Positions 21,271 through 24,930 of a stretch of DNA of 35,680 bases are shown piece by piece. Under the pieces are notes generated by a model. It made no database searches and had not been told where the DNA came from. It worked only from the letters and a program-made list of their open reading frames with translations. The stretch's first letter is position 1. Every line of letters begins with the position of its first letter. Position numbers and translations under genes: made by a program. Source of the DNA: Actinomycetota bacterium (GTDB taxonomy: Bacteria; Actinomycetota; Actinomycetes; S36-B12; UBA5976); the NCBI GenBank assembly GCA_027730605.1, contig JAQCGN010000006.1, forward strand, positions 1-35,680. Reading direction: 5' to 3'.

Positions 21271-22119
21271 ATGTTAAAAATTGCGATTCCTAATAAAGGC
21301 CAACTAGCTGATCCCACACAAAAATTATTAAGAGAAGCAGGTTATTTAAGAAGTCATCACCCTCGTGATTTAGTGGTAAGTGACCCAGAAAATGATGTTG
21401 AATTTTTCTTTCTTAGACCACGCGATGTTGCAACATATGTGGGAGAGGGAACCTTAGATTTTGGGATTACCGGAAAAGATTTATTGCTGGATTCCAAATC
21501 TAAAGCCAATTCAATCATGGATTTAGGATTTGGACAGTCAAGTTTTAGAATTGCCATGCCATCAATTAAAGACACAAAAGATATTTCATCGTTAAATAAT
21601 TTGAGAATAGCCACAAGTTATCCAAATATACTTAAAGATTGGTTAACTAAATCAGGCCTCAAGGCAGAAATAGTTGTGTTAGATGGAGCTGTAGAAAATG
21701 CAGTTCGATTAGGTGTTGCTGATGCAGTAGCTGATGTAGTCGATACTGGGACAACTTTGAAGCAGGCAGGTTTAGTGATTCTTGGTGAACCAATCTTACA
21801 AAGTCAAGCCGTGTTGTTAAAAGGAAAAAATACGAAAGACTCAATTGAGACTGATAACTTTATTCGAAGAGTTTCAAGTGTGTTAGTTGCAAGAGAATAC
21901 GTGATGGTAGATTACGACATTGAGCAATTTAAAGTCGAGCAAGCTTCAAAAATAACTCCTGGTATTGAATCACCAACGATTTCTCCTTTGCATGAATCTG
22001 GTTGGGTCGCAGTGCGAGCCATGACAAAAAGAAAAGAAATGCATAAAGTCATGGATGAGCTTTACGCAATTGGGGCAAAGGGAGTAATAGTCACAGAAAT
22101 AATGGCTTGTCGTCTCTAG
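21271..22119 (+). CDS. hisG: ATP phosphoribosyltransferase, long form
   Basis: Commits PRPP and ATP to histidine synthesis. The 282-residue length and a C-terminal ACT-like regulatory domain (about residues 210-282) mark the HisZ-independent long form, usually inhibited by histidine. Motifs are MLKIAIPNKGQL at the N-terminus, DFGITGKDLL, and the PRPP loop DVVDTGTTLKQAGL. The C-terminus reads AKGVIVTEIMACRL, typical of the family. The ribosome-binding site is weak. The 3' end overlaps the TTG start of the following SseB-like gene by 13 bases. Confidence 0.96.
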   Translation: MLKIAIPNKGQLADPTQKLLREAGYLRSHHPRDLVVSDPENDVEFFFLRPRDVATYVGEGTLDFGITGKDLLLDSKSKANSIMDLGFGQSSFRIAMPSIKDTKDISSLNNLRIATSYPNILKDWLTKSGLKAEIVVLDGAVENAVRLGVADAVADVVDTGTTLKQAGLVILGEPILQSQAVLLKGKNTKDSIETDNFIRRVSSVLVAREYVMVDYDIEQFKVEQASKITPGIESPTISPLHESGWVAVRAMTKRKEMHKVMDELYAIGAKGVIVTEIMACRL

Positions 22120-22739
22120 ATTTAACAAAAGACAAGGGCGATGCAGACCCAGTCTTAATTCAATTTCTCAATTCTAAGCAGTCAACCAGAGAACAAGTGT
22201 TCAATTATCTGACCACTTGCCGCTTAATAGGTGCGATAGTAGCCGAAAAAAAAGACGAAGTAGAAATGATGCAAGCACTTTTTAAATCAAATGATGGCAG
22301 AGTCGCCATGCCTGTTTTCACCAGTTTGCATCAGTTATCTATTTGGAATAAGGATGCTCGAGCTTTACCCAAGAAAATGACAGATTTTGTAAAATCTGCA
22401 CTTGAACAGAATATTGACGCGGTCATTATCGATATTTCTGCTACACACCGGTATGTAATTGAACAGCATGAGTTCTTTTTGTTGTTGCAAGATGAATTCT
22501 CACTAGTTCATCAGAATGAGAAAGTGATAGAGGCAATACAAAGTATTTGCAAAATCTATCCACAAATCAAAGATGTAATCATTGAGCAAGGGCAAGACTG
22601 TGACCTAAAAATAACCCTTCAAGCACAACAGATGAAACCAGAAGTAGTCGTGGAAATAGCAAACTTAATCAGCAACCACGAGGTAATCAGACAAAAAGCC
22701 CCCCGAGGTGCTGATTTATTTCTCAGTCCTGCGCTCTGA
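22107..22739 (+). CDS. SseB family N-terminal domain protein, function unknown
   Basis: The 210-residue protein resembles the SseB N-terminal domain proteins that actinobacteria often encode just before infC. The match is in the middle: GRVAMPVFTSLHQLSIWNKDARALP, followed by NIDAVIIDISATHRYVIEQHEFFLLL. The N-terminal part has CRLIGAIVAEKKDE, also usual for the family. There is no signal peptide, membrane segment or recognisable catalytic motif. The C-terminal 60 residues (VVVEIANLISNHEVIRQ) are alpha/beta and unassigned. The only good upstream start is TTG 22107, inside hisG; the next in-frame candidate, a GTG about 30 codons on, would cut the domain. SseB in Salmonella is an unrelated effector-system name for some proteins, so the name implies no role here. 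Confidence 0.75.
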   Translation: MSSLDLTKDKGDADPVLIQFLNSKQSTREQVFNYLTTCRLIGAIVAEKKDEVEMMQALFKSNDGRVAMPVFTSLHQLSIWNKDARALPKKMTDFVKSALEQNIDAVIIDISATHRYVIEQHEFFLLLQDEFSLVHQNEKVIEAIQSICKIYPQIKDVIIEQGQDCDLKITLQAQQMKPEVVVEIANLISNHEVIRQKAPRGADLFLSPAL

Positions 22740-22925
22740 TAATCTGTGAAATAACCAATCGCCAACCGGCGAAGCACAAGCGGAGACATCTCCCACCTGC
22801 TAGATCGCTTGAAAGATCTTTCGGGTAAGAAGACGATAGTGATTGTTAGAAAAACTAGAGTCGCAGTTCTTTAGCGTGTGCCACTTTAAATATTTAAAGT
22901 GGGGACAGCAAACAAAGGAGTAGGT
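22737..22925 (+). promoter_or_regulatory. Probable structured 5' leader of infC-rpmI-rplT
   Basis: At 186 bases this is the largest gap without a gene in the window, and it is rich in short inverted repeats. In order: TCGCC-aacc-GGCGA (22759-22772), GGAG-acat-CTCC (22782-22793), AGATC-gcttgaaa-GATCT (22802-22819), which competes with the palindrome GAAAGATCTTTC (22811-22822), and a perfect 22-nt palindrome at 22881-22902. GATAAT at 22738 is a possible -10 but has no -35. IF3 and L20 operons are autoregulated in other bacteria, so a leader is plausible; that this one is regulatory is inference. I recognise no named Rfam leader. Confidence 0.5.
22881..22902 (+). repeat. Perfect 22-nt palindrome upstream of infC ribosome-binding site
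   Basis: The left arm CCACTTTAAAT is exactly mirrored, giving an 11-bp dyad with no mismatch. As RNA it folds to a 9-bp stem with an AUAU loop, ending 11 bases before the AAAGGAG of infC. The alternative GTG start in the ORF track lies inside this palindrome, which argues against that start. No U-tract follows, so it is not a classical terminator. It could be a protein-binding site or an mRNA structure controlling infC translation. Confidence 0.7.
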
Positions 22926-23510
22926 ATCAGCGTAGAACCACGGATCAATGATCGGATCCGCGTACCTGAAGTGCGCTTAGTTGGACCAAACGGAGAACAA
23001 ATTGGTGTTACTCGAATTGAAGATGCAATTCGAATGGCAATGGAAAATGATTTGGATCTTGTAGAAGTAGCACCAGAAGCTAGGCCACCAGTGGCAAAGA
23101 TTATGGACTACGGAAAGTTCAAATATCAAGAAGCACTAAAGGCTCGCGAAAACAGACGCAGTCAGGTTAATGCGGTTGTTAAAGAAATGAAACTTCGTCC
23201 GAGAATTGAAAGTCACGACTACGACACCAAGAAGAATCATATAGAAAGATTTCTTTTAGGTGGCGACAAAGTCAAAGTGACAATCATGTTTCGTGGTCGT
23301 GAACAATCTCGTCCAGAAATGGGATACAAATTGCTGGCTCGTTTAGCAGAAGACCTCGCTGAAGTAAGCATTGTCGAATTTGCCCCCAAACAAGATGGTC
23401 GAAACATGGTCATGGTTTTAGCGCCTAACAGAAGAAAATCTGATGCAGTCCGAGCCAAGCAAGTGGCAAAAGACAAATCAGATAAAAAACTTGATACTGA
23501 AAAACTTTAG
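22926..23510 (+). CDS. infC: Translation initiation factor IF-3 with ATC start codon
   Basis: IF3 prevents premature 30S-50S joining and proofreads the start codon and initiator tRNA. The N-domain ([41 protein letters not shown]) and C-domain ([45 protein letters not shown]) are complete; the last about 25 residues are a charged tail. The track begins at GTG 22899, but AAAGGAG (22914-22920) sits 5 bases before ATC 22926, and the protein from there ([10 protein letters not shown]) matches actinobacterial IF3 N-termini. Rare AUU/AUC starts are a known infC trait, because IF3 discriminates against them and so limits its own synthesis. From ATC the protein has 194 residues. Confidence 0.92.
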
Positions 23511-23525
23511 GGAATAGGAATAGTT

Positions 23526-23723
23526 ATGCCGAAGATGAAAACACACAGTGGCGCTAAAAAGCGTTTCAAAAGAACTGGTACAGGAAAGATCACCCATGAA
23601 AGAGCTGGTCGAAGACACTTACTTGAGTCAAAATCAAGTAAAAGAACAAGACGTTTAGCTAACGAGCAACAGTTGGCACCCGGAGATAGCAAAAAAGCAG
23701 AACGCATGTTGGGTTTGCGTTAA
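23526..23723 (+). CDS. rpmI: 50S ribosomal protein L35
   Basis: The 65-residue basic protein of the large subunit begins [20 protein letters not shown] and contains the [16 protein letters not shown] core. GGGAATAGGAA provides a ribosome-binding site before ATG 23526. It lies between infC and rplT in the conserved infC-rpmI-rplT order. In Bacillus and E. coli the trio is controlled by L20 or IF3; whether that applies here cannot be seen beyond the leader described upstream. Confidence 0.98.
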
Positions 23724-23750
23724 AAACTTTAATAAGAAAGGAAGAGAAAA

Positions 23751-24116
23751 ATGGCACGTGTAAAAAGAGCTGTTAACGCGCATAAGAAACGTCGCGTCGT
23801 TATGGAAGAGGCGAAAGGTTACAGAGGTCAGCGTTCTCGTCTGTACCGAAAAGCTAAAGAACAAATCCTTCATTCACGCGTTTATTCTTTCAATGACCGT
23901 CGTGAGAAAAAAGGTGACTTTAGACGACTTTGGATTACAAGAATCAATGCAGCAGTTAGAGACAACGGATTGACTTACAATCGATTCATCCAAGGTTTAA
24001 ACGTTGCCGGAATAGAAGTTGATCGTCGCATGTTAAGTGAGATGGCAACCAATGATCCTCAGGCTTTCAAAGCAATAGTTGATGTAGCACGCTCCGCAAT
24101 TGTCAAAGCGTCCTAA
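23751..24116 (+). CDS. rplT: 50S ribosomal protein L20
   Basis: The 121-residue early-assembly protein binds 23S rRNA and, in other bacteria, represses its own operon. It has the basic N-terminal extension [15 protein letters not shown], the [15 protein letters not shown] helix, and the C-terminal [24 protein letters not shown] domain. GGAAGAG supplies a ribosome-binding site. Its 3' end overlaps the TTG-started methyltransferase frame by up to 17 bases, and a long hairpin begins 12 bases after the stop. Confidence 0.98.
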
Positions 24117-24930
24117 CAACGAAAATTCTTTGTCGGCCGAATCAAGTGCCTTAACGATTCGGTCGACAAAAGTGTCAAATGCTTTAGAGCTTTTAAATAA
24201 ACGAGATCGCGAATTAAGTTCAGAGTTCCTAGTTGAGGGAGCTCATGGCGTAGAAGAAGTTATCGCCGCTAATTTGGCTACGCAAATTTTTGTCACTAAG
24301 GAATTCGCACTCGCAAATAATGTTTTGATGAGTAAAGCTGCAAATGCTAGAATTTCTATTTTTGAAACTGACCCAATTGCAATTGAAAAACTAAGTGAAA
24401 CCTTAAGTCCACAAGGAATTGTGGCAGTAGCAGCATATGTTGCAAAGGATCTAGAAAAAGAAGATTTATTGAATGCTAATTTTGTAGTTGTTTTATCCAA
24501 TGTGAGAGAACCAGGAAACGCTGGATCTATCATCAGAGTTGCCGATGCTGCAGGAGCAGATCTTGTAATTTTTGCAGGAACTTGTGTTGATCCCCACAAT
24601 GGCAAAGTAGTGCGGTCAAGTGCGGGAAGCATTTTTAATGTCAAAGTAAGACAAGCAGATGATGTTGCTGAAACTCTTCGCGCCTTAACCCAAACAAATC
24701 ACAATATTTATATCGCCGATGGAAATGCGCAGATGTCTTGGAGTGATATTGACTTGAAAAATCCAGTTGCCTGGGTGTTAGGAAATGAAGCTTGGGGTGT
24801 GTCAAACGAGGATGCACCCGTTGGGCAAAGGGTTGCCATCCCAATTTATGGCAAGGCTGAATCACTCAATGTCGCCACAGCAGCAGCTTTGTGTCTGTAT
24901 GAGACCGCAAAAAGTCGTGCTGGCAATTAG
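24100..24930 (+). CDS. TrmH/SpoU-family RNA 2'-O-methyltransferase
   Basis: A SPOUT (knotted) RNA ribose methyltransferase like those found between rplT and pheS in actinobacteria. The N-terminal substrate-binding domain carries [15 protein letters not shown] and [12 protein letters not shown]. The SPOUT motifs are [21 protein letters not shown] (motif 1), [12 protein letters not shown] (motif 2) and [21 protein letters not shown] (motif 3), the last binding SAM in the knot. The exact RNA target is unknown. The start is uncertain: TTG 24100 overlaps rplT, TTG 24130 lies within a 15-bp hairpin, and GTG 24172 directly follows it but would remove conserved residues. No clear ribosome-binding site precedes any of them. 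Confidence 0.88.
24129..24170 (+). promoter_or_regulatory. 15-bp stem hairpin across the 5' end of the RNA methyltransferase gene
   Basis: Left arm TTTGTCGGCCGAATC (24129-24143) and right arm GATTCGGTCGACAAA (24156-24170) pair over 15 positions, 14 Watson-Crick and one G-U in RNA, around a 12-base loop. It starts 12 bases after the rplT stop. The following sequence is not T-rich, so a standard intrinsic terminator is unlikely; a tailless terminator, an mRNA processing site, or a structure masking the TTG 24130 start are options. The stem also encodes residues [14 protein letters not shown] of the methyltransferase. Confidence 0.7.

What the first reader, a model, noticed from the sequence alone, without database searches (positions are those of the whole stretch)
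22737..22925. Hairpin-rich infC leader with competing stems and a perfect 22-nt dyad
Within 186 bases there are four short stems, two of which share sequence (AGATC/GATCT against GAAAGATCTTTC), plus an exact 22-nt palindrome just before the SD. Competing stems are what a conditional leader would look like, and CTCC of the second hairpin could also pair with GGAG of the infC SD. Elsewhere in this window spacers are bare and short, so retained structure suggests function. The ligand could be IF3, L20 or another ribosomal component.
Basis: partly seen in the sequence, partly recalled or inferred. Interest (0 to 1): 0.6.

Follow-up and report, generated by a model that had tools for sequence, protein, structure and literature searches.

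The report
Actinobacterial infC leader RNA switch
The stretch before the translation-factor gene infC is part of an RNA structure found across the actinobacteria, which appears able to fold in two mutually exclusive ways and so turn this ribosome-related operon up or down, although what it senses is not known.

Summary
The stems are real (window 22759-22902) and belong to an infC 5' leader conserved across Actinomycetota. A core, AAGYGGAN..NUCCCACCYG-hairpin-CRGGU (window 22774-22829), was found in 190 of 247 class genomes. Every strong match examined lies just before infC, three divergent ones lie in other parts of the phylum, and 29 comparison infC loci, mostly from other phyla, have none. 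P1 and P2 covary. The core's 5' strand (GCACAAGCGGAG here) is complementary to, and covaries with, a downstream strand (z = -5.4; 40 composition-matched controls no lower than -2.8). That strand is usually the 5' arm of an intrinsic terminator. This gives the architecture of an antiterminator/terminator switch on infC-rpmI-rplT. A TANNNT -10 box lies 30-70 nt before the core in 65 of 71 leaders, and infC starts with AUC. In Streptomyces the element is Rfam Scr1601, filed as an sRNA. CUCC:SD pairing is not supported, and the 22-nt dyad is a local version of a variable hairpin. In the window's own genus the hairpin lacks a U-run and SD sequestration is not consistently predicted, so its output step is unresolved. 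The ligand is untested; bL20 is the best guess.

The parts
22740..22745 (+). probable -10 box (TAATCT, TANNNT type), adjacent to the stop codon of the upstream SseB-domain gene; inferred transcription start about 22752
   Evidence: TANNNT found 30-70 nt upstream of the core in 65/71 leaders versus 17.9 +/- 3.7 in shuffles; CTCTGATAATC conserved in genus relatives; no TTGACA-type promoter found
22759..22772 (+). P0 hairpin UCGCC-AACC-GGCGA near the inferred 5' end of the transcript
   Evidence: sequence and folding; similar hairpins seen by eye at this place in other lineages, not tested statistically
22774..22829 (+). conserved core of the leader (covariance model R1 match, 46.1 bits)
22774..22785 (+). 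switching strand 1 (GCACAAGCGGAG): forms the 5' side of P1 or pairs with switching strand 2
   Evidence: covaries with the downstream leader, z=-5.4 against 40 composition-matched controls of mean -0.06, sd 1.2, min -2.8
22782..22793 (+). P1 hairpin GGAG/CUCC (with G22780-C22794 beyond a bulged pyrimidine)
   Evidence: compensatory changes at the pairs for columns 11-22 and 12-21; divergent members with GGGG/CCCC and GGCC/GGCC
22795..22826 (+). P2 hairpin ACCUG/CGGGU with inner stem AGAUC/GAUCU
   Evidence: covariation at 3 of 5 outer pairs
22839..22864 (+). P3 hairpin, variable between lineages
   Evidence: alignment of genus relatives and folding
22867..22881 (+). switching strand 2 (UUCUUUAGCGUGUGC), equivalent in position to the terminator 5' arm of other lineages
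   Evidence: nearly invariant in five genus members
22881..22902 (+). P4 hairpin = the 22-nt dyad; CCAC/GUGG ends conserved in the genus, middle variable; no U-run follows
22914..22920 (+). Shine-Dalgarno sequence AAAGGAG of infC
   Evidence: sequence; conserved in relatives
22926..23510 (+). infC (IF3) with AUC start codon
   Evidence: TIGR00168 and PF00707/PF05198; AUC the only candidate start in 105 of 114 leaders
23526..23723 (+). rpmI (bL35), second gene of the probable operon
   Evidence: PF01632
23751..24116 (+). rplT (bL20), third gene of the probable operon
   Evidence: PF00453

Best explanation
[quoted passage not shown] Its core folds into P1 and P2, directly adjacent in sequence. 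The 5' strand of P1 and its flank (RCAAGYGGAG) can instead pair with the 5' arm of the downstream hairpin. If P1/P2 forms, probably when a ligand binds it, the downstream hairpin is free to form; in most lineages where it was recognised that hairpin is an intrinsic terminator and transcription would stop before infC. If the strand pairs downstream, the terminator cannot form and the operon is read. The most likely ligand is a product of the operon, first bL20, giving negative feedback as in Bacillus subtilis. In the window's genus the core, the switching strand and the hairpin are kept but the U-run is lost, so the output is presumably translational or acts on RNA stability. Shown here by sequence statistics: homology, P1/P2, covariation of the alternative helix, terminators in relatives, upstream -10 boxes, AUC start. 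Inferred: the switching itself, its direction, the ligand, and the output in this genus.
For: Core model hits 190 of 247 class genomes; all matches above about 27 bits that were examined sit 120-350 nt before infC. P1/P2: 96% of cells paired, 24 cells changed on both sides, 0 of 500 shuffles reach this, slid controls at most 57% paired; P1 pair swaps also in divergent phylum members. Alternative helix: own core x own terminator 5' arm -25.6 versus -23.4 kcal/mol permuted (0 of 2000), controls core x 3' arm and P3 x 5' arm not significant; 77 non-redundant leaders z=-5.4, 40 position-shuffled controls min -2.8. Terminator-like hairpins found in 63 of 114 leaders, 56 of them stronger than -12 kcal/mol. 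Streptomyces Scr1601, a detected transcript, coincides with the leader and ends at the terminator U-run (PMC8388888). M. tuberculosis infC has an abundant 326-nt 5' UTR, UTR/CDS 2.6-4.9 (PMC3207917). B. subtilis controls the same operon by L20-dependent attenuation (PMC6097659).
Against: No U-run follows the P4 hairpin in the window. The SD is more open than in shuffled leaders in four genus members (opening 1.1 versus 2.7 kcal/mol), and SD pairing is predicted in the window and G002 but not in G003, G006 or G005. Equilibrium folding favours P1 over the alternative helix by about 8 kcal/mol in the window (-62.1 versus -54.0). No Rfam L20 leader match, and no match of the core model to 23S rRNA or its flanks beyond chance, so nothing points specifically to L20. 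About half the leaders have no recognised terminator. The shuffle tests do not correct fully for phylogeny.
Confidence: 0.72

Rival explanations
1. The switch senses the operon product bL20 directly (an actinobacterial counterpart of the Bacillus L20 leader).
For: Same operon infC-rpmI-rplT in the window; same logic (ligand-stabilised fold permits the terminator) is established for B. subtilis L20 (PMC6097659); core is infC-specific, absent before infA in ten genomes.
Against: No Rfam L20-leader match; the core model finds no counterpart in 23S rRNA sequence.
Confidence: 0.4
2. The leader RNA is an autonomous regulatory sRNA (as Rfam files Scr1601) rather than a cis-acting leader.
For: Scr1601 is listed as an sRNA gene and was detected as a transcript in Streptomyces (PMC8388888).
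Against: Strict linkage to infC across the class, a terminator and competing helix just before the gene, and an intact SD and start downstream. The S. ambofaciens study found the scr1601 homologue in a UTR, not among its predicted sRNAs (PMC8388888).
Confidence: 0.1
3. In the window's genus the leader acts by translational control: switching strand 2 pairs with the SD (UUCUUU 22867-22872 with AAAGGA 22914-22919) unless it is held by the core.
For: Predicted in the window and G002; forcing the alternative helix frees the SD somewhat; five genus members keep the CCAC..GUGG hairpin.
Against: SD more open than in shuffled leaders; not predicted in G003, G006 or G005.
Confidence: 0.3
4. The only feedback is IF3 acting on the AUC start codon, as with the AUU start of E. 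coli infC; the leader stems merely protect the mRNA 5' end.
For: AUC is the only candidate start in 105 of 114 leaders.
Against: Does not explain the invariant core, its covariation, the terminators, or the covarying alternative helix. Both layers can coexist.
Confidence: 0.12
5. The 22-nt dyad is a DNA operator for a transcription factor.
For: Perfect palindrome, unique in the genome.
Against: The palindrome is not conserved in genus relatives, whereas the RNA hairpin is; it lies about 130 nt downstream of the inferred promoter.
Confidence: 0.03

Closest known systems
Rfam RF02830 Scr1601 (Streptomyces RNA 1601)
   Same: Same place (immediately upstream of infC), contains the same AAGUGGAG..CUCCCACC core and P2, ends at the U-run of the leader terminator.
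   Different: Filed as an sRNA gene and Streptomyces-centred; its structure model does not show the core:terminator pairing. The window scores no hit and Catenulispora only 31 bits against a 100-bit threshold. The window has no terminator.
L20-interacting leader of the Bacillus infC-rpmI-rplT operon (Firmicutes)
   Same: Same operon, leader upstream of infC, attenuation by a rho-independent terminator that forms when the regulator binds (PMC6097659).
   Different: Reported as narrowly distributed to Firmicutes (PMC6097659); no Rfam match in the window; the core motif was not found in Paenibacillus/Saccharibacillus/Cohnella infC loci; L20 binding untested here.
M. tuberculosis infC long 5' UTR
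   Same: Long, abundant 5' UTR (326 nt) with UTR reads exceeding CDS reads (PMC3207917); core model matches upstream of infC in g25, which I take to be mycobacteria.
   Different: That paper proposed shared elements between infA and infC UTRs; the core model does not match the infA loci of ten genomes.
E. coli infC start-codon autoregulation by IF3
   Same: Non-canonical infC start codon (AUU in E. coli, own knowledge; AUC here).
   Different: A start-codon mechanism with no aptamer-like core or competing helices; could act in addition.

Membership tests
Rfam RF02830 Scr1601 | scores above the family gathering threshold (100 bits) | tested here: not met
   No match in window 22000-24400 at E<=10; Streptomyces-type loci score 159-171 bits
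Rfam RF02830 Scr1601 | same position and same conserved core, i.e. homologous element | tested here: met
   Model R1 matches within the Scr1601 span in L136, L166 and L198 and in the window, always before infC
L20 leader of Firmicutes (Rfam L20_leader) | matches the family covariance model | tested here: not met
   No L20 leader match among Rfam hits in the window or in eleven related loci
L20 leader of Firmicutes (Rfam L20_leader) | controls infC-rpmI-rplT | tested here: met
   Gene order infC, rpmI, rplT directly downstream
L20 leader of Firmicutes (Rfam L20_leader) | binding by ribosomal protein L20 | not testable with these tools
   needs a binding or reporter assay
transcription attenuator (terminator/antiterminator leader) | intrinsic terminator between promoter and gene | tested here: not met
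   Not met in the window: no U-run on the + strand. Met in related leaders: 63 of 114
transcription attenuator (terminator/antiterminator leader) | mutually exclusive helix that consumes the terminator 5' arm | tested here: met
   Covariation of core 5' strand with the downstream strand; in the window the corresponding helix is 22774-22785 with 22870-22881
riboswitch (small-molecule aptamer) | direct binding of a metabolite | not testable with these tools
   ligand unknown
SD-sequestering translational leader | SD less accessible than expected in the off fold | tested here: inconclusive
   Pairing predicted in the window and G002 but ensemble SD opening energy is lower than in shuffles

The most novel reading that the evidence does not exclude
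A phylum-wide actinobacterial RNA aptamer class that controls IF3/L35/L20 synthesis by sensing something other than an operon product (for example a metabolite, a tRNA or an assembly intermediate), with an antiterminator built from the aptamer's own invariant 5' strand, and with its output changed from transcription termination to another mechanism in streamlined freshwater lineages.
Probability: 0.15. Interest if true: 0.82.

Novelty: new member of a known kind. Interest (0 to 1): 0.62.

Why it matters
Control of ribosomal-protein operons is said to be almost unstudied in actinobacteria (PMC8470358). This gives a concrete element, present in most genomes sampled including mycobacterial and Streptomyces-type ones, with named helices and a prediction of how it switches. 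It reinterprets an Rfam 'sRNA' as a premature-termination product of an operon leader, and gives a likely reason for the excess of 5' UTR reads over infC reads in M. tuberculosis. It makes the question of what senses IF3/L20 supply in actinobacteria directly testable.

Tried and rejected
(1) Shared infA/infC element, as suggested for M. tuberculosis: R1 has no match in the infA loci of ten genomes. (2) rRNA mimicry by sequence: R1 with filters off against three 23S loci and their flanks gives a best E of 0.25, and the AAGYGGA occurrences in 23S are chance-level. (3) CUCC:SD pairing: no better than permuted. (4) SD sequestration as the general platform: SD opening energies not raised in the genus, in other family members without terminators, or in other terminator-less leaders. 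(5) Leader peptide: no ATG in 22752-22925, and the GTG/TTG codons there have no SD (sequence read by eye). (6) Rfam psbJ hit at 22662-22722: sub-threshold chance match in the upstream coding sequence. (7) Second R1 copies in multi-hit genomes: weak (under 27 bits) with no infC downstream. (9) My first reading of the window hairpin as a clear SD-sequestering switch was dropped.

Full report
What is there. The finding lies between an SseB-domain gene (22107-22739, PF07179) and infC. infC is best read from an AUC codon at 22926 with the SD AAAGGAG at 22914-22920; rpmI and rplT follow. The 22-nt palindrome at 22881-22902 is the longest in the window and unique in the genome. Simulation says a palindrome this long is unusual but not astonishing: 2 of 60 simulated windows had one of 20 nt or more.

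The leader is conserved far beyond the genus. IF3 searches in the genus and family and in named genomes gave leaders whose first part shares the motif AAGYGGAN..NUCCCACCYG-hairpin-CRGGU. A covariance model of that core (R1) matched 190 of 247 genomes drawn from the class. All matches above about 27 bits that were examined lie 120-350 nt before infC. Weaker extra hits in the same genomes mostly have no infC downstream. Three matches outside the class also precede infC, with P1 rewritten as GGGG/CCCC or GGCC/GGCC. Twenty-nine further infC loci, mostly Acidobacteriota and Bacillota with three divergent actinobacterial ones (L042-L044), have no match. The infA loci of ten actinobacteria have none either.

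The core structure is supported by covariation. On the MAFFT alignment, 96% of cells pair, five of nine pairs carry changes on both sides (24 cells), no shuffle of 500 reaches this, and sliding the partners by 1-3 columns drops pairing to at most 57%. In an anchored count over 79 leaders the two variable P1 pairs both show compensatory swaps. These controls do not fully remove phylogeny. The unpaired AA, the bulged pyrimidine and CCCACC are almost invariant, which suggests recognition by something.

The competing helix. Terminator-like hairpins were found between P2 and infC in 63 of 114 leaders, 56 of them stronger than -12 kcal/mol. The core of each leader pairs better with its own terminator 5' arm than with those of other species (-25.6 versus -23.4 kcal/mol, 0 of 2000 permutations), while core x 3' arm, P3 x 5' arm and core x SD do not differ from permuted. 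The pairing strand is GCRCAAGYGGAG of the core with the terminator strand of type CYYCYGCRUGYGC. In 77 non-redundant leaders the effect has z=-5.4. When positions of the strand are shuffled, keeping each species' composition, 40 controls have mean z -0.06, sd 1.17 and minimum -2.8. The helix uses the GGAG of P1 and the 5' arm of the terminator, so it excludes both. That is the architecture of an antiterminator.

Transcription start. A TANNNT -10 box lies 30-70 nt upstream of the core AAG in 65 of 71 leaders against 17.9 +/- 3.7 in shuffles. In the window it is TAATCT at 22740-22745, so the transcript probably begins near 22752 and includes all the stems. This is inferred, not mapped.

The window's own genus. 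The core, the switching strand (UUCUUUAGCGUGUGC, 22867-22881) and a CCAC..GUGG hairpin are kept in relatives (G005's contig begins inside the core), but the hairpin middle changes freely, so it is conserved as an RNA hairpin and not as a DNA palindrome. There is no U-run. The switching strand could pair with the core, with AAGAA before P3, or with the SD. SD pairing is predicted in the window and G002 but not in G003, G006 or G005, and the SD is more open than in shuffled leaders. Forcing the alternative helix costs about 8 kcal/mol relative to the free ensemble. I therefore do not claim a mechanism for the output step here. Related genera of the same family (L093 and L098, g3; L087, g4) still have terminators, so the U-run was probably lost.

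Comparison with the known. Rfam Scr1601, filed as a Streptomyces sRNA, is this leader: it matches Streptomyces-type loci at 159-171 bits, spans the core, and ends at the terminator U-run. It was experimentally confirmed as expressed in S. coelicolor, as cited in PMC8388888, where the S. ambofaciens homologue was found in a UTR. M. tuberculosis infC has an abundant 326-nt 5' UTR (PMC3207917). In B. subtilis the same operon is controlled by L20-dependent attenuation through an RNA reported as restricted to Firmicutes (PMC6097659). Regulation of ribosomal proteins in actinobacteria is described as almost unknown (PMC8470358). I found no description of a class- or phylum-wide infC leader in the held literature, which lacks most subscription journals. 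I file it as a new member of a known kind: it works like an attenuator leader, is homologous to Scr1601, and is not a member of the Firmicutes L20 leader family by model match.

Start codon. AUC is the only candidate start in 105 of 114 leaders. By analogy with the AUU start of E. coli infC (own knowledge) this suggests a second, IF3-dependent layer of control.

Confidence. That this is a functional, conserved cis-regulatory leader: about 0.9. That it switches through the core:downstream helix: about 0.75. That the ligand is L20: about 0.4. That the window's genus uses SD sequestration: about 0.3.

Noticed in passing
L198:1375-1600 (-), Rfam RF02830: Rfam's Streptomyces sRNA Scr1601 coincides with the infC leader including its terminator, so the family is probably a cis-regulatory leader and not an independent sRNA gene.
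   Followed up: yes
window 22926: infC starts with AUC here and in nearly all relatives (105 of 114 leaders); ORF finders pick an upstream GTG (22899) that lies before the SD.
   Followed up: yes
L010 (CAMATO010000053.1): A MAG titled Bifidobacterium breve carries an IF3 93% identical to the window's and the same leader; it is a Nanopelagicales-like genome, so the record name looks wrong.
   Followed up: no
L154:1501-1546 (+), L162:1501-1551 (-) and L145:1501-1544 (-): Weak core-model hits (19-23 bits) not near infC but with a similar GGA..UCCCACC-hairpin layout; could be chance or a second site.
   Followed up: no
window 22827-22872: AAGAAGA (after P2) can also pair with UUCUU of the switching strand, extending P3 around 22839-22864; absent in G005. 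A third competitor for the same strand.
   Followed up: partly
L170, L031, L034-L041 (Microbacterium and relatives): Core variant with AAAGAGGA in place of AAGYGGA; the complementary downstream strand changes in step (for example L031 CGAAAGAGGA with CTCCTCTTCG).
   Followed up: partly
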